From assembly GCF_001570945.1 (NCBI RefSeq), contig NZ_BCSQ01000024.1:1-48575 (forward strand): a stretch of 48,575 nucleotides of DNA, read 5' to 3'. Both the position numbers and the translations under genes were made by a program. This document shows, in pieces, positions 1 through 38,097 of the stretch. Under the pieces are notes generated by a model. That model saw nothing but the letters and a program-made list of their open reading frames with translations. It was not told the origin of the DNA and did no database searches. This DNA is from Janibacter anophelis NBRC 107843 (GTDB lineage Bacteria > Actinomycetota > Actinomycetes > Actinomycetales > Dermatophilaceae). Within the stretch, counting starts at the first letter, position 1; each line of letters begins with the position of its first letter.

Positions 1-150
1 TTTCCTTGCCCGTGACCACCGGGGCCGGGCCCGCCGCGGCCGCCGCGGCCGGGACCGGTCGAACCTCCGCTGCCAGAGGCAGCGGTCTGGCCGGATGCTT
101 GTTGTTGGTCCTGGCCCTGCTGGTGCAAGGTTGGTCATGTGGTCCGGCGT

Positions 151-27997: not shown

Positions 27998-28081
27998 CCG
28001 GATCCGACCGCACGCAACCGATGTGCCGGCACGGGCGTCGGATGCACTGAGGGACGGATGCACTCGCGGGAGGGGCAACGC

Positions 28082-29590
28082 ATGCGACCACGTCGACGGG
28101 GACTGTCACGGGGGACGGCCGCAGCCGGGATGTTGGGGCTGGCGATGGCTGTCGTGGCGGCCACTCCCACGCAGGCCGGGCCGACGGAGGCGACCGCCAG
28201 CGACGATGTGGGCCACTCCTTCACGGACAGGCCCTGGGGTCAGGCACCGTGCCCGGAGGGCATGTCCCGACGCCGGACCGTCTACACCAACAGCTTCGAG
28301 GACGGCCTGCCCTGGGCCCGGTTCGCCCACGGGTGGAGCTCGGTCACCTCGTCGTCCTCCTCGGGCAGCAAGGTCGCCCGCTCGCGCATGACGGCGGGTC
28401 AGAGCGACCCGGGAGAGTACTTCCACCTCCCGATGCAGCAGGTGACCCCCGGCGAGCACACCCGCGTCGCCATGGCGTCGCGCGGCACCATGGGCCAGCG
28501 TCGTGGCTGGGTCACGGCGAACTCCGTGCGGTACCAGACCAGCGGTTCCTCCTCCTGGCGCGGGGTGAGCGTCAACATCACCGGTGCCACCGACGACGAC
28601 GGGGGCTGGATCGGGACCTACATCGAGCAACGACGCACCTCGGGCGTCAACTCCGTGTGGGACATCGACAACCTCCAGATGTACACCTGCCGGGACAACC
28701 GCACCACGCGCATCTTCGGGGCCACCCGATATGAGACGGCCGCCGCCATCACCCGCAGCTACTCCGCACGCCAGCCCGTCGTCTACGTCGCCCGCGGGGA
28801 CGCCTTCCCCGACGCCCTGGCCGGCGCAGCCCTGGCGGGCCACAAGGGAGCCCCCCTCCTCCTCGTCGAACCCGGTCGGGTGCCGACGGCCGCCGCCCGG
28901 GAGCTCGAGCGACTCGATCCCGCGTCGATCGTCGTCCTCGGCGGCCCCGACGCGATCTCCGACGGCGTGGTGCAGCAGCTGCGTGGCCACTCGGGGCAGG
29001 TGCGGCGTCTTGCTGGCGATCTGCGGTGGGAGACCTCGGCGCTGGTCGCCCAGGAGTTCGACGACCCTGACCGCATGTACCTGGCGACGGGTCGTGATTT
29101 CCCCGATGCGCTCTCGGGTGGCGCTCTCGCGGGGAGGGACGGCGCTCCGGTCCTGCTCACCGACACGGCGACGCTGCCGCCCGTCGTGGCCGACGAGATC
29201 CGACGGGTGCGGCCCTCGGAGGTCGTCATCCTCGGCGGCCCGAACGCGGTCCAGCTCGCGGTCGAGAGCCAGGTGCGTGCCCTCGGGGTGTCGGTGAGAC
29301 GGCTCCAGGGCGCCACCCGGTACGCCACCTCCGCGGCGATCGCCGAGGCCTTCGGCAATGGGCCCGACCGCTCGTACCTCGCGACGGGCACGGACTTCGC
29401 CGACGCACTCGCGGGGTCGGCCCTCGCCGGACACACCGCCTCCCCGCTGCTGCTCACCGAGCCCAACCAGATCCCGGCGCCGGTGAATGCCCGGTTGACC
29501 GCGATGTCCGAGCGCACGGGTCACGTCCTCGGCGGCCAGGACGCCGTCGCCGCCATCGTCCGTGACCGATACGGCCGGACCCTGCCGTGA
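28082..29590 (+). CDS. Secreted protein with three CWB2 cell-wall-binding repeats
   Basis: 502 residues from ATG 28082, chosen over 28058 because GGGAGGGG lies 6 nt upstream. It has a Sec-type signal peptide (Arg-rich start, hydrophobic core about 12-27, Ala-x-Ala-like site near 32). Residues about 60-205 look like a beta-sandwich, possibly sugar-binding, with two Cys. Three CWB2 repeats of about 98 residues follow (from about 209, 307 and 405), each with a Gly-x-x-Arg-Tyr/Trp-x-Thr start, Phe-Pro/Ala-Asp-Ala-Leu and a Val-(Leu/Ile)-Gly-Gly turn. CWB2 domains tether proteins to anionic wall polymers, so it probably binds the glycan made by this locus. It lies 16 bp before the next gene. Confidence 0.88.
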   Translation: MRPRRRGLSRGTAAAGMLGLAMAVVAATPTQAGPTEATASDDVGHSFTDRPWGQAPCPEGMSRRRTVYTNSFEDGLPWARFAHGWSSVTSSSSSGSKVARSRMTAGQSDPGEYFHLPMQQVTPGEHTRVAMASRGTMGQRRGWVTANSVRYQTSGSSSWRGVSVNITGATDDDGGWIGTYIEQRRTSGVNSVWDIDNLQMYTCRDNRTTRIFGATRYETAAAITRSYSARQPVVYVARGDAFPDALAGAALAGHKGAPLLLVEPGRVPTAAARELERLDPASIVVLGGPDAISDGVVQQLRGHSGQVRRLAGDLRWETSALVAQEFDDPDRMYLATGRDFPDALSGGALAGRDGAPVLLTDTATLPPVVADEIRRVRPSEVVILGGPNAVQLAVESQVRALGVSVRRLQGATRYATSAAIAEAFGNGPDRSYLATGTDFADALAGSALAGHTASPLLLTEPNQIPAPVNARLTAMSERTGHVLGGQDAVAAIVRDRYGRTLP

Positions 29591-29606: not shown

Positions 29607-30290
29607 ATGAGGACGCGCACACGCATGCTCGACGGCGAGCTGCTCGACGTCGACGCACCGGGCGCGGCGACGCTGTCGACCGCCACGGCCGTGTCGGTCG
29701 TCGACGTGGACAGCACGGAGCTGGAGCTGACCGCGGGACCCCTTGAGGTCCTGGAGTTCTTCCTGTCGTCGACCTCGACGACCCTGGACCGACAGGTGAC
29801 CCTGCGCAACCAGCTGACGATGCGCCACGGAGCGCTCGGCGGCACGCCCCGTCACGGGCGCGCCTTCGCCGTCGAGGTCGCGGAGCACCGGGTCTTCGGG
29901 TCCGTCCCGCCCGGGCTCGCGCTCGACGACCTCACGGCGTGGTTGGGGCGCATGACCTTCGCCAGCACGCGTGAGGGCGCCCGGGTCGATCTTGGCCCCG
30001 GGCAGTCGTGGTCGGCGACCCGCGCCCACGCGGTCGCGCAGCATGTCGGACTGGACGCTGACACCGGGTACCTCCTCGACGTCCGGCGGGCGCGAACGCG
30101 CTCCGCCCGGGCCCGCACTGCCGGCCACGCGGTGCGCGGGGGCTCGCTCTCCCGCAGCCCGCGCAGTGACGAGCACCGTCACGTCGTGCTCGACGCGCCC
30201 GAGTTCGTCTCCTACGGTCTGCCCCTGGCGGCCACGAGTCTCGACGAGGTGGCGACGTCGATGTCGACCCTGACCACGGAGCTGGCATGA
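29607..30290 (+). CDS. Unknown 227-aa protein of the Mau-like operon
   Basis: The ATG follows GAGGGGA. No signal peptide, no membrane helix and no cysteine. The N-terminal half reads as beta strands rich in Thr, Val and Ser; the second half has an Arg-rich patch (about residues 150-180) before a final acidic helix. No family recognised. Its ATGA overlap with the MauE-like gene shows translational coupling. In methylamine dehydrogenase clusters this position is held by the heavy chain, which this protein does not resemble (no beta-propeller length, no export signal). Possibly a cytoplasmic chaperone or assembly factor for the Cys-rich product. Confidence 0.65.
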   Translation: MRTRTRMLDGELLDVDAPGAATLSTATAVSVVDVDSTELELTAGPLEVLEFFLSSTSTTLDRQVTLRNQLTMRHGALGGTPRHGRAFAVEVAEHRVFGSVPPGLALDDLTAWLGRMTFASTREGARVDLGPGQSWSATRAHAVAQHVGLDADTGYLLDVRRARTRSARARTAGHAVRGGSLSRSPRSDEHRHVVLDAPEFVSYGLPLAATSLDEVATSMSTLTTELA

Positions 30291-30829
30291 CGCCGGTGGC
30301 ACTGCTCACCTGCGCGCTCGTCCTGGGTGCCACGGGCCTGGGACATGCGGCTGCGCCCGGTCGCACACGGCAGGAGATCGCCGCCCACCGGGTCCTCCCC
30401 CGCCCGCTCGCCCACGTCGTCGCCCTCGCCCTGCCGCCCCTGGAGCTGGGCATCGCCGCACTGCTCGTCGGGGCCGTCCTGACGCCTCAGGTCGCGCTCG
30501 ACCGGTGGTCTGGTGGGGCGGCCGCGCTGCTCCTCACGGCCTTCGCCGGCTACCTGGCCCTCGCGCTGCGGCGGGGTGCCGGGGGCCTGCCCTGCGCCTG
30601 TGGGGCCGGCACCGCCCCCCTGGCCGGCTGGAGCGTGGCGCGGGCCGCGCTCCTGGCCGGGTGCGCACTGCTGGGGGCCCTCCTTCCCTCGCCCCTCGCG
30701 ATCACGTCTCGACCGTGGGCGGAGGTGGTGATCGTCGGCTGCGCCGCGGTGACCTTCGCGATCGGCCTGTGGGCGTTGCCCTCGGCCCGCCATGACCTGG
30801 GCGCCCGCCCCCGAGAGGCGCACCCGTGA
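30287..30829 (+). CDS. MauE/DoxX-like thiol-redox membrane protein
   Basis: 180 residues with four to five membrane helices. Between helices is Leu-Pro-Cys-Ala-Cys-Gly-Ala-Gly (about residues 98-105) followed by Gly-Trp-Ser-Val-Ala-Arg-Ala-Ala-Leu-Leu; this matches the Cys-x-Cys-x-Gly ... Arg-Asn pattern of MauE/DoxX-type proteins, which handle disulfide redox exchange at the membrane, related in role to DsbB or VKOR. Start and stop overlap neighbouring genes by 4 bp (ATGA, GTGA). Partner of the MauD-like protein immediately downstream. Confidence 0.8.
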   Translation: MTPVALLTCALVLGATGLGHAAAPGRTRQEIAAHRVLPRPLAHVVALALPPLELGIAALLVGAVLTPQVALDRWSGGAAALLLTAFAGYLALALRRGAGGLPCACGAGTAPLAGWSVARAALLAGCALLGALLPSPLAITSRPWAEVVIVGCAAVTFAIGLWALPSARHDLGARPREAHP

Positions 30830-31344
30830 GCTTCACCACCGCAGCCCTGCTCGTCTCGTGGTTGGCGATCGCACTCCTCGCCTTCGGCATGGCTGGCCTG
30901 ATGCGCCAGATCGCGGTGCTCACGGTGCGCCTGGAGCACGGCCAGTCCAGCGGCAGCCGTCGCACCACCCGGGACCTCATCGGCTTCTCCCTGCCCGACA
31001 CCGGCCCCGGCGGCCCGCTGCGCGGCCCCCGCGGCTCGCTCGTCCTCTTCAGCTCGCCCGCCTGTGCCAGCTGCGGCGAAGCCCTCGAGGACCTCGCCGG
31101 CATCCACACCGACCGCGACCTCGTCGTGGTCTCCAGCGGTGGGTGCGCCGGGGTCGAGTCGCGGCTGCCCGCCGCCCGGTGCGTCGAGGACGGCGGCGAC
31201 CTGATGGACCGGCTCGCCGTCCCTGCCACGCCCTACCTCGTCGCCATCGACGCCGACGGCACGATCCGCGACGTCCTGCTGCCCTCCGGACCCGACGACA
31301 TCGCCGCGTGGGCTCCGACCATGCCGACCCAGGAGCAGAGATGA
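30826..31344 (+). CDS. MauD-like membrane-anchored thioredoxin
   Basis: 172 residues. An N-terminal membrane helix (about 5-25) leads to an extracytoplasmic thioredoxin-like fold with the active site Pro-Ala-Cys80-Ala-Ser-Cys83 and a cis-Pro loop Val-Pro-Ala-Thr-Pro (about 131-135). Two further Cys (Gly-Gly-Cys-Ala and Ala-Arg-Cys) follow. MauD proteins are thought to form or rearrange disulfides in the methylamine dehydrogenase light chain. Here the neighbour encoded next, with an ATGA overlap, is a Tat-exported protein with 10 cysteines, the obvious client. Confidence 0.8.
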   Translation: MSFTTAALLVSWLAIALLAFGMAGLMRQIAVLTVRLEHGQSSGSRRTTRDLIGFSLPDTGPGGPLRGPRGSLVLFSSPACASCGEALEDLAGIHTDRDLVVVSSGGCAGVESRLPAARCVEDGGDLMDRLAVPATPYLVAIDADGTIRDVLLPSGPDDIAAWAPTMPTQEQR

Positions 31345-31865
31345 CCATTCGCTTCGACGACCTCCCCGAAGCCGACCAGGGGCTGCTGCGATCTCGCCTC
31401 GTCGCCGTGCCGCGCACCCGGCGCGGGGTCCTGCGGACCGTCCTGGGCGCGGGGTCCGCCGTGGCACTGGGCACCTTCACCCTCATCAACAACGGCGCCC
31501 AGCGCGCCGCGGCCGCAACATACTTCAACGACTGGACCAGCACCTCGTCCGGACCGTGCGGAGCCGGTGGCTATGCGTCCGGGCACACCGAGGCCGGGGC
31601 CAAGTGCGGCCCGTCGACGCCGTGCTACGACCGCACCTGCTGCTGGAAGTACCACAACGGCGCCGGCAACCGGGTCGGGTGGCACACCCAGGGGCCGGGC
31701 CGCGGGAGCCGCTACTACACCCACCGCCCCGACGCCTGTTACGCCGGCACGTACGACTCGTGGCACTGGCGCTTCAGCGACGGCAGGACCTACCGCTGCT
31801 CGGACGGCTGGACCTGCTCCACGACCGGTGGGTGCTACCGCTCGATCTGTCCCTGGGCCGTGTGA
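31341..31865 (+). CDS. Tat-exported protein with 10 cysteines, MauA-like position
   Basis: 174 residues. A long leader holds Arg-Thr-Arg-Arg-Gly-Val-Leu-Arg (about 25-32), a twin-arginine type signal, then a mild hydrophobic core to about residue 50 and an Ala-rich cleavage region (56-60). The mature part of about 114 residues has ten Cys (73, 89, 95, 100, 101, 133, 153, 159, 165, 170), seven Trp and many Tyr and Gly, so five disulfides are possible. It stands where mauA (methylamine dehydrogenase light chain; long leader, twelve Cys) follows mauE and mauD. But neither a heavy chain nor MauG is encoded here and the Cys spacing differs. I read it as an unknown secreted disulfide-rich protein. 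Coupled on both sides (ATGA, GTGA). Confidence 0.75.
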   Translation: MTIRFDDLPEADQGLLRSRLVAVPRTRRGVLRTVLGAGSAVALGTFTLINNGAQRAAAATYFNDWTSTSSGPCGAGGYASGHTEAGAKCGPSTPCYDRTCCWKYHNGAGNRVGWHTQGPGRGSRYYTHRPDACYAGTYDSWHWRFSDGRTYRCSDGWTCSTTGGCYRSICPWAV

Positions 31866-32056
31866 GCACGCAGACCGGCTCCCGCCCCACACCGACGCGT
31901 CGATGGGTCGCCGACCCCCTCGCCGCCCTCGTCGTGGTCGGCGGCCTGGTCGTCGCCCTCATCACGACCAGCGCGGCCGGCCACACCATCCCCCCGGCCG
32001 GGTTCCTCATGCTCGGCGTCACGGCCGCCGGTCTGGCGCTCTCGGGCTCGACCTGA
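31862..32056 (+). CDS. Small two-helix membrane protein (64 aa)
   Basis: GTG overlaps the stop of the Cys-rich gene by 4 bp (GTGA). A basic N-terminus of about 17 residues is followed by two hydrophobic helices (about 18-38 and 43-62) with a short Gly-His-Thr-Ile-Pro-Pro turn. No family recognised. Overlap and position suggest a membrane partner in export or maturation of the Cys-rich protein. Too short for a confident assignment. Confidence 0.6.
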   Translation: MSTQTGSRPTPTRRWVADPLAALVVVGGLVVALITTSAAGHTIPPAGFLMLGVTAAGLALSGST

Positions 32057-32080
32057 GGCATCAACAGCGCATGGGCGCTG

Positions 32081-32656
32081 TTGGCCTCGGTCCGGGGCCA
32101 GATGGGTCGACTCCCCCTGTGGGGCTCCTTCGCTGCCGGCACCACGCTGGGCGGGGGTGCCACCGGGGTGGTCGTCGCGGTCATCGCAGGACTTGTCTCG
32201 GTCGTGCCCGAGCCGGTCCGGTGGTGGGGCCTGCTCGCCACCGCGCTCGTGGTCGTGGTGCTCGACCTCGTCGAACCCGTCCTCCGCCTGCCCCAGCGGA
32301 CCACCCTCATCCCGCAGGAGGTCTTCGCCCGTGGCATGGCGACGGGGATCTTCCGCTTCGGGCTCGAGTACGGCACCGGTGTGCGCACGCTGGTGCCGTC
32401 GGCCGCACCCTGGGTTGCCCTGCTGACGATCATCGCGTGGAATCCGCACTGGGTCGTCACGCTCGTCGCGGGGCTCGTCTTCGGCCTGTCCCGGTCGCTG
32501 GCCGTGTTGCAGTTCGTGCTGCTGGGTGCCGACGGATGGCAGGCATTCCTCGCCGGACACACGCGGCTGCTCGAGCGACTCGGCACCCTCGTCACCGCAC
32601 TCGCCTGCCTGCTGGCGGTCGCGTCCGCCGTCGGGTGGGGCCCGCCCTACCGATAG
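32081..32656 (+). CDS. Polytopic membrane protein, MauF-like position
   Basis: 191 residues if the TTG at 32081 is used; ATG 32102 is the alternative and neither has a strong ribosome binding site. Five to six membrane helices. A Gly-rich first helix (Gly-Thr-Thr-Leu-Gly-Gly-Gly-Ala-Thr) and a Phe-Arg-Phe-Gly-Leu-Glu-Tyr-Gly-Thr-Gly-Val-Arg-Thr stretch (about 91-103) stand out. Mau clusters include a membrane protein, MauF, distantly related to DsbD/CcdA transporters, which could supply or remove reducing equivalents; this may be a counterpart, by inference from context only. It is 24 bp after the 64-aa gene and overlaps the convergent glycosyltransferase by 10 bp. Confidence 0.6.
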   Translation: MASVRGQMGRLPLWGSFAAGTTLGGGATGVVVAVIAGLVSVVPEPVRWWGLLATALVVVVLDLVEPVLRLPQRTTLIPQEVFARGMATGIFRFGLEYGTGVRTLVPSAAPWVALLTIIAWNPHWVVTLVAGLVFGLSRSLAVLQFVLLGADGWQAFLAGHTRLLERLGTLVTALACLLAVASAVGWGPPYR

Positions 32657-34071
32657 ATCCAGCGAGCGATCTCGGCCCGGGCCCGCCGGTACTCCGGTGA
32701 GGACCCCTGCACGAGGTGCTCCAGCGGTGCGTTGCCCAGCCGGTGCGCCGGCAACTCCTGCGTCAGGCGAAGGGGGCGCCGCCCCCTTCGTCCCGTCCCT
32801 GAGGCTCCCTCGTCGGTGACGAGGTCGACCGGCGTGCGCGGGTCGGGCAGGGCCCGTCGCCACACCGGCGGCCCCCACCCGGTGGCCGCGAGGGGCGCCG
32901 GCGGCGCCGCGCCCGCGGCGAGGTCGACGAGCAGGTGGGCGGTCTCGCGCCCCCCGGTCGTGTCGGGCAGGTCGGCACAGACCTCGCGCAGCCGCTCGCC
33001 GGTGTCCGGCTCGAGGGCGGTGGTCACCGCGGCGCGCACCGCGTCACGGTCATCGGGCGGTGCGCTCAGGCAGACGCCGGACGCCGCGAGGGTGGCCGCG
33101 CGCCCGGGCTGGTCGTCGGTGCCGAGCGACTGCCCGGGCACGAGCACCGTCGGGACGCGGGCGCCGAGGAGCTCGTGCACGGAGTTGTAGCCTGCGGCGC
33201 TCACCGCAGCGTCGAAGGCGGCCAGCGAGCGCGCGAGCGGGTAGGTGTCGGTGAGCAGGACGAGGTCGTCGCCGGAGATACCGTGCCGCGCCAGGGCCGG
33301 GCTGGTCACGGCGACCTGCCAGTCGGGCGCCACCCTGCGGACCACGTCGAGCGCGACCTGCGCCGGCGAGGCGACGTCCTCGAGCGCCCCAGTGCCGGGC
33401 GTCAGCAGGAGCGCGGGGCGGTCCGGGTCGAGACCGAGCGCGCGACGCGCGGTCGCCCGGTCCTGCAGCTCGATCGCGTCCGCGATCGAGATCGGGGCGA
33501 CGCGGTGCGCGTCGTCGCGCCCCACCGTCGCGCCGCGGTCGCCCTCTGCGGCGAAGTCACCCGGCTCGACGACGAGGTCGAACAGGCCCGCGTGCTCGAG
33601 CCACTGCTCCCCCGCACCCGGGCGCCACATCCCCCGTCGCATCCAGACGAAGGGGGTCCCCTCCAGCCGTCGTCGCGCCTCCCGCAGTCCCGCGTACGGC
33701 ACGACGCCGTCGAAGAGGACGAGCCGGGCACCGGTCTCGGCGACGAGCGCGTGGAGCCGGTCGGCGAAGTAGGGCTCCCAGCCGTAGGCGGGGTGGACCT
33801 CCCGCAGCCGCCGGCCGAGGCCGCCGCTCGGCAGCCACCCGCTCTTCCTGCTGGGGCAGTACTCGGTGCGCACGCCGCGCAGCTCCGGCAGGCGCCCCTC
33901 GGCGACGGCGGTCGCAACCGTCGGCAGGGCGCCGGAGAGGGACATCAGGACCGGGTCGAGCCGGTCGGGGGCGCTCAGGGCGACGGTCAGCTGACGGGTC
34001 AGGTGACCCATGCCCACCCCGTTGCTCGTGACGAGCAGTACCGGCAGCGGCGTGTCGGGGGGTGCGGACAT
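32647..34071 (-). CDS. GT-B glycosyltransferase (GT1/GT28-like)
   Basis: 474 residues from ATG 34071. The N-terminus has Thr-Ser-Asn-Gly-Val-Gly-Met-Gly-His-Leu-Thr-Arg, like the Gly-x-Gly-His acceptor loop of MurG and GT1/GT28 enzymes. The C-terminal half shows Leu-Leu-Thr-Pro-Gly-Thr-Gly, then Ala-Gly-Tyr-Asn-Ser-Val-His-Glu-Leu (about 315-323), the GT28-type donor site. The last about 100 residues are an Arg-rich extension with a palindromic CGAAGGGGGC/GCCCCCTTCG in its DNA (about 32768-32790). Start fits a leaderless transcript. Divergent from wecC, 126 bp apart. Confidence 0.78.
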   Translation of the reverse strand: MSAPPDTPLPVLLVTSNGVGMGHLTRQLTVALSAPDRLDPVLMSLSGALPTVATAVAEGRLPELRGVRTEYCPSRKSGWLPSGGLGRRLREVHPAYGWEPYFADRLHALVAETGARLVLFDGVVPYAGLREARRRLEGTPFVWMRRGMWRPGAGEQWLEHAGLFDLVVEPGDFAAEGDRGATVGRDDAHRVAPISIADAIELQDRATARRALGLDPDRPALLLTPGTGALEDVASPAQVALDVVRRVAPDWQVAVTSPALARHGISGDDLVLLTDTYPLARSLAAFDAAVSAAGYNSVHELLGARVPTVLVPGQSLGTDDQPGRAATLAASGVCLSAPPDDRDAVRAAVTTALEPDTGERLREVCADLPDTTGGRETAHLLVDLAAGAAPPAPLAATGWGPPVWRRALPDPRTPVDLVTDEGASGTGRRGRRPLRLTQELPAHRLGNAPLEHLVQGSSPEYRRARAEIARWIYR

Positions 34072-35454: not shown

Positions 35455-36356
35455 CGGAGGCCCCGCAGCGGGCTCCCCTCCCTTCGCCCATCAGCTCGGA
35501 GGAGGCCGCACGCCTCGCGGCCGAGCACGGGCTGCGGACGCTCAGTGAGCGTCCACCGCTCCATCGCTACCTGGTCGACCTGTGGCAGCGTCGGTCCTTC
35601 GTGTGGACGCTCTCGTCGGCCGAGTCCTACGCCAAGAACGAGGACAACCAGCTCGGCCAGCTGTGGGCCGTGCTCAACCCGGCACTGCTCATCCTGAGCT
35701 ACTACGCAATCTTCGGATTGCTGCTGGGAACCCGCGGCGGCATCGACAACTTCGTCGGCTTCCTCTCGATCGGGGTGGTGATGTTCGCCTTCACCTCGAC
35801 GGTCGTCACCCGCGGGGCCAAGGCCATCACCGGCAACCTGTCGCTCGTGCGCGCCCTGCACTTCCCCCGAGCGATCCTGCCGATCGCCGTGACGTTGACG
35901 GAGTTCATCGCCGCGCTGCCGGCCTTCGCGTTGCTCTTCGCCCTGATGTTCCTCACCGGGGAGAGCCCGGACTGGGAGTGGCTGCTCTTCCCCGTGGCGG
36001 TGCTCCTGCAGGGGATCGCCCTGCTCGGCTTCGCCTTCATCTGCGCCCGACTGGTCAACATCTCCCGCGACATCGGCAACCTCATCCCCGTGGTGGTGCG
36101 GCTGCTGCGTTACGTCTCGGGCGTCTTCTTCCCGGTGCTCCACTACGCACAGAGCCTGCCCGACGCCGTCGGCAATGTGCTGATCTACCAGCCCTTCGCC
36201 CTGATGCTCACCCTGGGACGGCAGTCCCTCCTCGGGGGCGAGGGATTCGACGTCGTGCTCACCGACTGGCTCGCCATGGCCGCGTGGGCCCTCGGTCTGG
36301 CGGCCATCGGGTTGGTCGTCTTCTGGTGGGACGAGGCGAGGTACGGCCGTGGCTGA
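35451..36356 (+). CDS. ABC-2 polysaccharide exporter permease (Wzm/TagG-like)
   Basis: 301 residues. A cytoplasmic N-terminus of about 65 residues precedes six membrane helices. Tyr-Ala-Lys-Asn-Glu-Asp-Asn-Gln-Leu-Gly-Gln-Leu-Trp-Ala-Val-Leu-Asn-Pro (about 63-80) is the family's gate-helix region, seen in O-antigen and teichoic-acid exporters. GTG overlaps the wecC stop (GTGA). Together with the next gene it should export an undecaprenyl-linked glycan across the membrane. Confidence 0.88.
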   Translation: MTEAPQRAPLPSPISSEEAARLAAEHGLRTLSERPPLHRYLVDLWQRRSFVWTLSSAESYAKNEDNQLGQLWAVLNPALLILSYYAIFGLLLGTRGGIDNFVGFLSIGVVMFAFTSTVVTRGAKAITGNLSLVRALHFPRAILPIAVTLTEFIAALPAFALLFALMFLTGESPDWEWLLFPVAVLLQGIALLGFAFICARLVNISRDIGNLIPVVVRLLRYVSGVFFPVLHYAQSLPDAVGNVLIYQPFALMLTLGRQSLLGGEGFDVVLTDWLAMAAWALGLAAIGLVVFWWDEARYGRG

Positions 36357-38097
36357 GGCAAGCGGACCCGGGACGCCCACCGTCATCGTCAGCCACCTGG
36401 ACGTGCACTACACCGTCTTCGGCGGCGGTCGACGCGGCGTGCCGAGCGGGCAGGGCACGCCGACGTCCTTCACGGACCGGCTGCGGCGCCACCGGCCGAC
36501 CCCCAAGGTGCGCCAGATCCATGCGGTCAAGGACGTCAGCTTCGTCGCCCGGCACGGTGAGTCCATCGGGATCATCGGCCGCAACGGATCGGGCAAGTCG
36601 ACGCTGCTGCGGGCGGTGGCGGGCCTGATCCCCCCGTCGTCCGGTCGCCTGTGGGTCTCGGGCGAGCCATCACTGCTCGGCGTCAACGCGGTCCTGATGA
36701 GCAAGTTGAGCGGCGAGCGCAACATCTACATCGGCGCCCAGGCGCTGGGCCTGTCCAAGGCCGAGATCGCCGAACGCTTCGACGAGATCGTCGAGTTCTC
36801 GGGGATCGGCGATGCCGTCTACCGGCCCATGAGCACGTACTCCTCCGGGATGGGCGCGCGCCTGCGCTTCGCGATCTCGACGGCCGCGACGCCGGACGTG
36901 CTCATGATCGACGAGGCCCTGGCCACGGGCGATGCCGACTTCCGGCACAAGAGCGCCGAGCGGATCGCGAGGATCCGTGAGCAGGCCGGCACGGTCTTCC
37001 TCGTCTCGCACTCCAATGGCAGCATCCGGCAGATCTGCGACCGGGTCCTGTGGATGGACCAGGGGCGCCTGATCATGGACGGTCCGACCGAGGAGGTCCT
37101 GCCGCAGTACGAGGCCACGCTGCCGCAGAAGAAGCGCAAGAAGGTCGTCGAACCCGCCGACCCCGCGGTCCCGGGAACCGTGCGCCATGGCGGCCGTGAC
37201 CGGCTCGACGTGGCCGCGGCCGTGACCCACAACTTCTGGAGCTCCGGCGTCGACGGCGCCTTCGTCGTCAGCACCCATCGTCTCGCTGCCGCGCGTGCGG
37301 TGACGCCCGTGGCCGCACGGCTCGGCTGGCCGCTGCTGTGGGTGCGGCCCGGCGCCGTGCACACGGCGACCCGCAACGAACTCGAGCGGCTGCGTCCCCA
37401 GCGCCTCGTCGTCGTCGGCGGCGAGGGGCTGATCTCGTCGGAGACCTACGAGACCCTCGAGAGCCTGGCGGTCGGGTCCATCGAACGTCTGGGCAGCGAT
37501 GACAGTGCGGTCACGTCCGCGGCGCTGGTCCGGGAGTTCCCCCCGACGGACACCACCCATCTGCACGTGACCCTGCCGCACAGCGCCGGCAGCGCGCCGG
37601 CGGTCTCGCTCGCAGCCGCTGTCCGCGGCCAGGCGGTCTTCCTCCTCGACGCCTCGTCGTGCCCCGACACCGCGTACGAGGCCCTGCAGGATCTGGCCCC
37701 GAGCGTCATCACCTTCCACGGAGCGGAGGAGGACTGGTCCGCCGACGTGCTGGACCGGGTTCGGCAGGCGACCGGCGCCCGCGTCGAGTTCGAGGCAACC
37801 GGCGGGCCGATGGCGCTGGCCGCCGGATTGTGGGAGGACACCGCGCCGGGGGGCCGCATCCTGGTCACGGGTCAGTCCGCGCTCGAGGTCCTCACGGCCT
37901 CGGTTGCCGCGGTTCACGCCGGCATCCCCCTCCTGCTGACCACCGCGGACCGACTGCCCGGCCGGGTGCGCAAGACCATCGAGCGGCTCGCGCCCCGAGA
38001 GATCGTCATCGCGGCCACGGTCACGGGACTGCCGGCGCCCATCCGCGAACGCCTCGGCACGCTCGTCGGTGGACGCTCTGACTCATCGTCGGGGTGA
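36349..38097 (+). CDS. ABC exporter ATPase (Wzt/TagH-like) fused to CWB2-like repeats
   Basis: 582 residues. The ATPase spans 10-255: Walker A Gly-Arg-Asn-Gly-Ser-Gly-Lys-Ser-Thr (77-85), Lys-Leu-Ser-Gly-Glu-Arg-Asn-Ile-Tyr typical of Wzt/TagH, signature Tyr-Ser-Ser-Gly-Met (164-168), Walker B Val-Leu-Met-Ile-Asp-Glu-Ala (184-190) and H-loop His221. A basic linker (261-266) leads to about 300 residues with the CWB2 rhythm: Gly-Gly-Arg-Asp-Arg-Leu-Asp-Val-Ala-Ala, a Pro-Leu-Leu-Trp-Val strand, Leu-Arg-Pro-Gln-Arg-Leu-Val-Val-Val-Gly-Gly (about 344-354), repeated three times in degraded form. In Wzt proteins a C-terminal domain recognises the glycan; CWB2-like repeats in that place are unusual. 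Its GTG overlaps the permease by 8 bp. Confidence 0.85.
   Translation: MAEASGPGTPTVIVSHLDVHYTVFGGGRRGVPSGQGTPTSFTDRLRRHRPTPKVRQIHAVKDVSFVARHGESIGIIGRNGSGKSTLLRAVAGLIPPSSGRLWVSGEPSLLGVNAVLMSKLSGERNIYIGAQALGLSKAEIAERFDEIVEFSGIGDAVYRPMSTYSSGMGARLRFAISTAATPDVLMIDEALATGDADFRHKSAERIARIREQAGTVFLVSHSNGSIRQICDRVLWMDQGRLIMDGPTEEVLPQYEATLPQKKRKKVVEPADPAVPGTVRHGGRDRLDVAAAVTHNFWSSGVDGAFVVSTHRLAAARAVTPVAARLGWPLLWVRPGAVHTATRNELERLRPQRLVVVGGEGLISSETYETLESLAVGSIERLGSDDSAVTSAALVREFPPTDTTHLHVTLPHSAGSAPAVSLAAAVRGQAVFLLDASSCPDTAYEALQDLAPSVITFHGAEEDWSADVLDRVRQATGARVEFEATGGPMALAAGLWEDTAPGGRILVTGQSALEVLTASVAAVHAGIPLLLTTADRLPGRVRKTIERLAPREIVIAATVTGLPAPIRERLGTLVGGRSDSSSG

What the first reader, a model, noticed from the sequence alone, without database searches (positions are those of the whole stretch)
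29607..32656. Mau-like disulfide pathway dedicated to a Tat-exported Cys-rich protein inside a glycan locus
Seen: five genes in a row with 4-bp ATGA/GTGA overlaps encode an unknown 227-aa protein, a four- to five-helix MauE/DoxX-like protein with a Cys-x-Cys motif, a membrane thioredoxin with CxxC (MauD-like), a Tat-type exported protein with ten cysteines and seven tryptophans, and a 64-aa two-helix protein; a six-helix membrane protein follows. Known: MauE and MauD mature the disulfide-rich light chain of methylamine dehydrogenase, encoded in the order E-D-A. Inference: this is a repurposed, self-contained maturation and export system for a new surface protein, since no heavy chain and no MauG are present.
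Basis: partly seen in the sequence, partly recalled or inferred. Interest (0 to 1): 0.82.

Follow-up and report, generated by a model that had tools for sequence, protein, structure and literature searches.

The report
Hidden selenium protein in disulfide cassette
What looks like two small membrane-protein genes is very probably one gene read through a stop codon as selenocysteine: a selenium-containing relative of MauF, a little-understood membrane protein, carried with its helpers MauE and MauD and an exported cysteine-rich protein that they probably help to fold.

Summary
In 26 of 26 close cassettes the TGA sits in conserved SGST-TGA-G[LVI]NSAW. Of 87 MauF-family loci examined that cover the site, 79 have TGA and 8 Cys; the UGA aligns with the invariant Cys75 of annotated MauF. 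A SECIS-type hairpin about 30 nt downstream shows compensatory changes. Sec genes occur in 50 of 51 drawn TGA genomes (one by a SelA fragment only) and 0 of 7 Cys-only genomes; the window's genome has the set. So this is a selenocysteine MauF homologue ("SecMauF"), absent from a 119-family 2026 catalogue and NCBIfam. Outside the close group it lies near a MauD-like thioredoxin in 47 of 51 TGA loci and a Tat-exported Cys-rich protein in 46 of 53. Redox direction and role are inferred; no experiment shows Sec insertion.

The parts
28058..29590 (+). Probably secreted protein with a ~215-aa N-terminal domain and three cell-wall-binding-2 repeats; conserved directly upstream of p1
   Evidence: PF04122 186 bits, 3 stretches; N-terminal domain found upstream of p1 on the same strand in 25 of 26 loci, not in L029
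29607..30290 (+). p1, 227-aa protein of unknown family, first of the mau-like genes
   Evidence: no Pfam/NCBIfam match; present in 26 of 26 loci; weak HMM match to the corresponding Nonomuraea gene (11.8 bits, domain E 5.8e-6 in a search of that one protein)
30287..30829 (+). MauE-family membrane protein with Cys-x-Cys
   Evidence: PF07291 60.7 bits, cut-off 27
30826..31344 (+). MauD-like membrane-anchored thioredoxin, CASC
   Evidence: TIGR02661 E 6e-6, below the equivalog cut-off; tblastn to annotated MauD of Paracoccus yeei, 24.6% identity, E 0.04
31341..31865 (+). Tat-exported Cys-rich protein (10 Cys), the presumed substrate
   Evidence: RR27-28 and 10 Cys invariant in 26 sequences; no family
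31862..32656 (+). secMauF: one selenoprotein gene, 264 aa with Sec65 (p5 + TGA + p6), integral membrane MauF homologue
   Evidence: AlphaFold model (Cys for Sec) pLDDT 84.3, pTM 0.84, helical
32054..32056 (+). in-frame TGA read as selenocysteine (Sec65)
   Evidence: TGA in 26 of 26 close loci and 79 of 87 covered loci, Cys codon TGC in the other 8; aligns with MauF Cys75
32081..32101 (+). putative bacterial SECIS hairpin, GUC apical loop closed by G-C (GGUC), 9-bp stem, loop starting 33 nt after UGA
   Evidence: hairpin MFE -13.2 kcal/mol; covariation in A8; position control

Best explanation
The cassette encodes a dedicated extracytoplasmic disulfide-handling module: MauE (CxC membrane protein), a MauD-like protein (membrane thioredoxin, CxxC) and SecMauF, an integral membrane MauF homologue, of probable DsbD/CcdA kinship, whose conserved redox residue is selenocysteine, inserted at UGA 32054-32056 under a SECIS hairpin. 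Shown by sequence evidence: the recoded UGA, the homology to MauF, the conserved module, the Tat-signal Cys-rich partner. Inferred: SecMauF passes reducing equivalents (or a disulfide) through its Sec to the Cys pairs of MauE/MauD. MauD then forms, reduces or shuffles disulfides in the Tat-delivered Cys-rich protein p4, which ends up at the cell surface together with the cell-wall-binding protein encoded upstream. My estimate: Sec identity 0.95; dedicated maturation of the Cys-rich protein 0.75; reductive (isomerase-supporting) rather than oxidative direction 0.6.
For: UGA: TGA at the same place in 29 of 29 contexts, which are 26 distinct loci, with invariant residues on both sides; no start codon in the first 8 codons after the TGA in any of 26 loci, none within 12 codons in 2 of 26, and no SD-like motif before it in the 24 that have one. 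Cys exchange: 79 TGA, 8 TGC, 0 other in 87 covered loci; the U aligns with MauF Cys75, profile-profile E 1.2e-4; the tree needs 3 Sec/Cys changes, 2 forced by well-supported branches. SECIS: 69 of 76 distinct TGA sequences meet the bSECIS criteria against 1 of 8 Cys loci and 841 of 3159 control positions; loop at +29..33 in 66 of 76 against 178 of 3159; covariation 0.628 against 0.207 shuffled (0/500) and 0.145 for the best slid version, 0.275 against 0.061. Sec machinery: SelA, SelB, tRNA-Sec, SelD on contig C84; any Sec gene in 50 of 51 TGA genomes, 0 of 7 Cys-only (p 2.7e-8). Module, leaving out the loci the HMMs were built from: MauD-like within 4 kb on the same strand in 47 of 51 TGA loci against 0 of 51 on the opposite strand; leaving out the 26 loci found through p4: Tat Cys-rich partner in 46 of 53 against 9 of 53 on the opposite strand. 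MauF-MauE single ORFs in 7 loci. DsbD kinship: DsbD_2 over its cut-off in L158 (25.4 against 24.9 bits), 7 of 23 members at E<=0.01; DsbD_TM 5 of 23.
Against: No experiment shows selenium in the protein. One TGA genome (G439, 73% complete) has neither tRNA-Sec nor SelA, and G383 only a SelA fragment at a contig end. Seven of 76 TGA sequences miss the SECIS criteria, folding-energy z-scores are modest (mean -1.05 for TGA, -0.32 for Cys), and two of five covariation measures do not stand clear of the shuffles (pairs with two-sided change 5 against 4.0, 31/500; further pair types 10 against 8.9, 119/500). The hhalign probability to MauF is only 55%. The window's own SecMauF has no Pfam DsbD match. 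Outside the loci used to build the HMM, MauE was found in 26 of 51 TGA loci against 9 of 51 on the opposite strand, so its linkage is the weakest. p4 could not be modelled (pLDDT 37.6), so the disulfides are unseen. Substrate and electron direction are not tested here. In 3 of 8 Cys loci neither MauE nor MauD was found nearby and only 4 of 8 have a Tat Cys-rich neighbour, so the family may also work outside the module.
Confidence: 0.8

Rival explanations
1. p5 and p6 are two separate genes; the TGA is a real stop and p6 starts again downstream by coupling.
For: Both pieces are open frames; a GTG/TTG/ATG exists 9 codons after the TGA in 24 of 26 loci.
Against: The eight residues between TGA and that codon are conserved; no SD-like motif in those 24 loci and no start codon within 12 codons in 2 of 26 (the joined gene's own start also lacks one, 0 of 26); Cys replaces the stop in homologues, where one ORF spans both parts.
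Confidence: 0.03
2. UGA is read through as an ordinary amino acid (Trp or near-cognate), without selenium.
For: Read-through at UGA is known in bacteria (recalled).
Against: In the 87 covered loci UGA is exchanged with Cys and with no other residue; it goes with Sec machinery and with a covarying hairpin.
Confidence: 0.02
3. The cassette is a methylamine-dehydrogenase-like TTQ system: p4 is a MauA-type catalytic light chain.
For: MauE, MauD and a MauF homologue sit beside a Tat-exported Cys-rich protein, as in mau clusters; partners of WSPU-type loci share CPPGS..GWWK with MauA by eye.
Against: p4 and MauA profiles align only over the Tat signal; no Me-amine-dh_L over the cut-off and no Me-amine-dh_H in 7 genomes, though no control genome scored over the cut-off in either search.
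Confidence: 0.07
4. Same selenoprotein, other chemistry: SecMauF moves a small thiol, metal or electrons to a membrane cofactor rather than serving disulfides of p4.
Confidence: 0.15

Closest known systems
MauF of the methylamine-utilisation (mau) cluster (Paracoccus, Methylobacterium, Indioceanicola plasmids)
   Same: Homologous over ~176 columns, invariant Cys at the Sec site in the 6 sequences aligned, same clusters hold mauE and mauD
   Different: Sec instead of Cys; no recognised MauA or MauB alongside; linked to other Cys-rich Tat proteins
DsbD/CcdA transmembrane family (Pfam DsbD_2 PF13386, DsbD_TM PF02683)
   Same: Some relatives of the window protein match these models weakly, one above the cut-off
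   Different: DsbD and CcdA use a Cys pair (recalled); here one conserved Sec and, in 22 of 27 WSPU-type members, no Cys at all besides
Known bacterial selenoprotein families (119-family table in PMC13188914; TsoB is the only entry there named after DsbD)
   Same: UGA + bSECIS + Sec machinery
   Different: No MauF-like or MauE/MauD-linked family is listed

Membership tests
Bacterial selenoprotein | Conserved in-frame UGA with coding conservation on both sides | tested here: met
   26 of 26 close loci; 79 of 87 covered family loci
Bacterial selenoprotein | Cys-containing homologues with Cys at the UGA position | tested here: met
   8 of 87 loci, plus 6 annotated MauF
Bacterial selenoprotein | bSECIS hairpin 16-37 nt downstream (criteria from PMC13188914) | tested here: met
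   window hairpin, loop +33; 69 of 76 TGA sequences; covariation
Bacterial selenoprotein | selA, selB, selC, selD in the genome | tested here: met
   SelA 389.6 bits over the cut-off, tRNA-Sec 70.3 bits and ARAGORN; SelB 218.9 bits, below the 242 cut-off because the contig ends in it; SelD named from reading the ORF
Bacterial selenoprotein | Selenium in the protein shown by experiment | not testable with these tools
   -
MauF | Profile homology including the conserved Cys/Sec | tested here: met
   hhalign E 1.2e-4, probability only 55%; bridging sequences, e.g. L158 28% identical to MauF of L123 and L124
MauF | Sits in a methylamine dehydrogenase cluster with mauB and mauA | tested here: not met
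   none in the cassette; genome searches found none, but their controls did not score over the cut-off. Hence filed as a MauF homologue, not as MauF
MauE | Pfam MauE above the cut-off | tested here: met
MauD | TIGR02661 equivalog cut-off 188.6 bits | tested here: not met
   25.8 bits: MauD-like only
MauA (methylamine dehydrogenase light chain) | Me-amine-dh_L match or alignment over the Cys-rich part | tested here: not met
DsbD/CcdA | Pfam DsbD_2 or DsbD_TM above the cut-off | tested here: inconclusive
   window protein no match; relative L158 25.4 against 24.9 bits

The most novel reading that the evidence does not exclude
SecMauF is an uncatalogued, widespread selenoprotein family (matches in 65 of 396 drawn Actinomycetota genomes, the window's own included; 53 of the 69 matches hold one in-frame TGA). 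In it an integral membrane protein uses one selenocysteine, often with no other Cys in the chain, as the whole redox relay across the membrane, serving a module specialised for folding many different Tat-exported disulfide-rich surface proteins; the Cys75 of classical MauF is the same catalytic relay in TTQ-enzyme maturation.
Probability: 0.5. Interest if true: 0.9.

Novelty: new variant of a known kind. Interest (0 to 1): 0.83.

Why it matters
The genes are cut in two by ordinary stop-codon annotation, so a large redox family can stay out of sight. If true, it adds a widespread selenoprotein family, shows a use of selenium in many Actinomycetota besides formate dehydrogenase, and points to one residue (MauF Cys75 / Sec65) as the likely active site of MauF, whose role in methylamine dehydrogenase maturation is, as far as I recall, unexplained. 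It also gives a module by which to recognise exported disulfide-rich proteins whose function is unknown.

Tried and rejected
Pfam and NCBIfam on each ORF gave no family for p1, p4 or p6, nor a match over a cut-off for the read-through protein; NCBIfam gave nothing relevant for 23 MauF-family members. Rfam found no SECIS family in 31500-32700. Profile comparison of p4 with MauA aligned only the signal part. The p4 fold failed (pLDDT 37.6), so no fold search was made with it. VIA-align on the SecMauF model gave only weak matches, an Rnf chain first and CodB second; no entry titled DsbD, CcdA or VKOR is among the 50 rows shown, which proves nothing. Plain Foldseek against PDB could never be queued. 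Folding-energy z-scores (mononucleotide shuffles) did not separate TGA from Cys loci well. I first took the Cys-rich partner in L211 as fused to cell-wall-binding repeats; Pfam did not confirm it, dropped. Considered and rejected: sequencing error or pseudogene at the TGA (same codon in 26 distinct loci).

Rows dropped before counts: 4 of 69 matches (G372, G470, G241, G466) were not fetched because their match starts after the site; 4 of 91 loci do not cover the site. In one search I placed the site seven residues too late; for the model position was set after seeing that. The covariation alignments hold 38 sequences, taken from the 53 of 76 distinct TGA sequences that carry GGTC at the expected offset, near-copies left out, and split by stem register into 23 and 15. 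The tree used 75 rows: 71 of the 87 loci (18 close ones and some short ones left out) and 4 MauF. The 26 close cassettes were found through p4 and have a Cys-rich partner by construction; 28 of the 79 TGA loci went into the MauE/MauD HMMs; one search gives the counts without them.

Literature: searches (listings only) showed no paper on a selenocysteine MauF; PMC13188914 seen in abstract, found passages, sections 5 and 9 and parts 1-2 of 3 of section 7, which hold Table 1; PMC5029168 passages only.
Full report
1. Observation. The six ORFs exist at the stated coordinates with the stated 4-bp overlaps. p2 is a MauE family protein (PF07291, 60.7 bits), p3 a MauD-like thioredoxin (TIGR02661, 25.8 bits, far below the equivalog cut-off), p4 a Tat-signal protein with ten cysteines. 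Together there are 26 distinct cassettes in the order p1-p2-p3-p4-p5-p6 (p2 was not detected by BLAST in one, L098). Ten Cys and the twin Arg of p4 are invariant in 26 of 26. In the window's own genus 1 of 16 genomes has the cassette.

2. The last two ORFs are one gene. p5 and p6 share a frame and are separated by a single TGA. In the contexts examined (29, of which 26 distinct loci) the stop codon is TGA every time, at the same place in SGST*G[LVI]NSAW. Residues on both sides are invariant in the read-through alignment. No start codon occurs in the first eight codons after the TGA in any of 26 loci, 2 of 26 have none within twelve, and no SD-like motif precedes the first possible start in the 24 that have one. 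The start of the joined gene itself, overlapping p4, also lacks one (0 of 26), so the SD count alone is weak; the conservation carries the argument.

3. It is a MauF homologue with Sec for Cys. Searching plasmids with p3 led to annotated mau clusters (mauF-mauB-mauE-mauD-mauA). Profile comparison of the read-through family with six MauF sequences aligns 176 columns (E 1.2e-4, probability 55%) and puts the UGA on MauF's invariant Cys75 in LSTWSPCGYSS. A modest probability by itself, it is made firm by bridging sequences: a model built from both found matches in 65 of 396 drawn Actinomycetota genomes, the window's included (E<=0.001). Many are of the type WSPUGESML; one of them, L158, is 38% identical to the Cys-containing L163 and L178 and 28% to MauF of L123 and L124. 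Of the 69 matches 53 hold one in-frame TGA and 16 none; no other stop codon is reported inside a match. I examined 65 of the 69 (window) with the 25 other close cassettes and the Nonomuraea locus. At the site, 79 of 87 covered loci have TGA, 8 have TGC, none has anything else; 4 do not cover it. The tree needs three Sec/Cys changes, two of them forced by well-supported branches; several long branches make its deep part unsure.

4. SECIS. By the criteria of the 2026 review (PMC13188914, section 5), 69 of 76 distinct TGA sequences carry a qualifying hairpin, against 1 of 8 Cys loci and 841 of 3159 control positions 25-147 codons downstream. With the loop at +29 to +33 the counts are 66 of 76 against 178 of 3159. 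Many apical loops read GGUC, with different stems in different groups: GGCCUC/..GGGGCC near the window, CUCCCC/GGGGAG in the WSPU group, CCCCGU/ACGGGG in the FGPU group. In the 23-sequence alignment 98.1% of cells pair, 40 cells have two-sided changes against 12.5 shuffled, and the covariation score is 0.628 (shuffled 0.207, 0 of 500; best slid version 0.145); the number of pairs with two-sided change (5 against 4.0, 31 of 500) and of further pair types (10 against 8.9, 119 of 500) do not stand clear of the shuffles. The 15-sequence alignment gives 97.6% and 0.275 against 0.061. The coding constraint acts on the same bases, rows were chosen by their GGTC loop, and related sequences can exceed the shuffles, so this is support, not proof. 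Mean folding z-scores are modest (-1.05 for TGA, -0.32 for Cys).

5. Machinery. The genome's contig C84 holds SelB (cut by the contig end), SelA, tRNA-Sec (70.3 bits; ARAGORN anticodon tca), SelD and, by reading, formate dehydrogenase genes. In the family draw, 23 of 24 p4 genomes have tRNA-Sec at E<=1e-9 against 97 of 162 without p4 (p 3.6e-4); the exception, G128, has SelA over the cut-off. L029's genome has tRNA-Sec (73.4 bits). In the phylum draw, of the genomes with a covered site, 46 of 51 TGA genomes have tRNA-Sec of 55 bits or more and 0 of 7 Cys-only genomes do; the 55-bit line is mine, drawn above the look-alikes at 53 bits and below. Of the other five, G202, G332 and G340 have SelA over the cut-off, G383 a SelA fragment at a contig end, G439 nothing (73% complete); SelA is absent from all 7 Cys-only genomes. 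Any Sec gene: 50 of 51 against 0 of 7, p 2.7e-8; without the fragment 49 of 51, p 1.2e-7. SelA was searched only in genomes short of tRNA-Sec and two references.

6. The module. In total a MauD-like protein lies within 4 kb on the same strand in 75 of 79 TGA loci and MauE in 54 of 79; for the 8 Cys loci 5 and 4. The HMMs were built partly from 28 of these loci; in the other 51 TGA loci the counts are MauD 47 (opposite strand 0) and MauE 26 (opposite strand 9). The MauE HMM misses some: G544's MauE is visible in its frames but was not scored. A Tat-type Cys-rich protein (heuristic: RR, hydrophobic stretch, at least 6 Cys) is near 72 of 79 TGA and 4 of 8 Cys loci; without the 26 close loci, 46 of 53 TGA, against 9 of 53 on the opposite strand. 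The partners shown fall into several kinds: p4-like (also in Nonomuraea, 30% identity), a kind with an LGFP tail in L109 (PF08310) and CPPGS..GWWK reminiscent of MauA by eye, and an HxCGHTYTTGSCPHP kind. In seven loci (L182, L184, L196-L199, L201) the SecMauF frame runs on into a MauE domain (Pfam MauE in 2 of the 23 members scanned). In 25 of 26 close cassettes the gene before p1 encodes the same cell-wall-binding-2 protein as window 28058-29590. Of the other flanking window ORFs tested, five have hits in 1 to 13 of 25 loci, positions unchecked, the rest none.

8. Known or new. The 2026 catalogue of 119 prokaryotic selenoprotein families and subfamilies lists no such family (Table 1), NCBIfam has no relevant match, and seven paper searches showed none (55, 56, 84, 85, 121, 122, 132; open-licence PMC only, no preprints). 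How RefSeq annotates these genes could not be seen. It is a new selenoprotein family within a known superfamily, in a module that varies the known mau accessory set.

Noticed in passing
window 36349-38097: An ABC transporter ATPase carries a C-terminal cell-wall-binding-2 domain (PF00005 67.7 bits and PF04122 44.2 bits), an unusual fusion for a cytoplasmic ATPase.
   Followed up: no
L181 and L214 (genome G284): One genome has both a Cys-MauF and a Sec-MauF locus.
   Followed up: partly
L083 and L100 (genome G128): Two copies of the window-type cassette in one draft genome.
   Followed up: no
L079 (genome G126): tRNA-Sec lies about 6 kb from p4, suggesting occasional linkage of Sec genes to the cassette.
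   Followed up: no
window genus g1: The cassette is in 1 of 16 genomes of the genus: gained by transfer or lost repeatedly.
   Followed up: no
L182, L184, L196-L199, L201: SecMauF-MauE fusion frames of about 400 aa; CGCFGG is seen in the MauE part of the two aligned (L182, L199).
   Followed up: partly
L180, L185, L200 (Cys-MauF loci): MauE and MauD models hit the same open frame, so MauE-MauD fusions are likely there.
   Followed up: no
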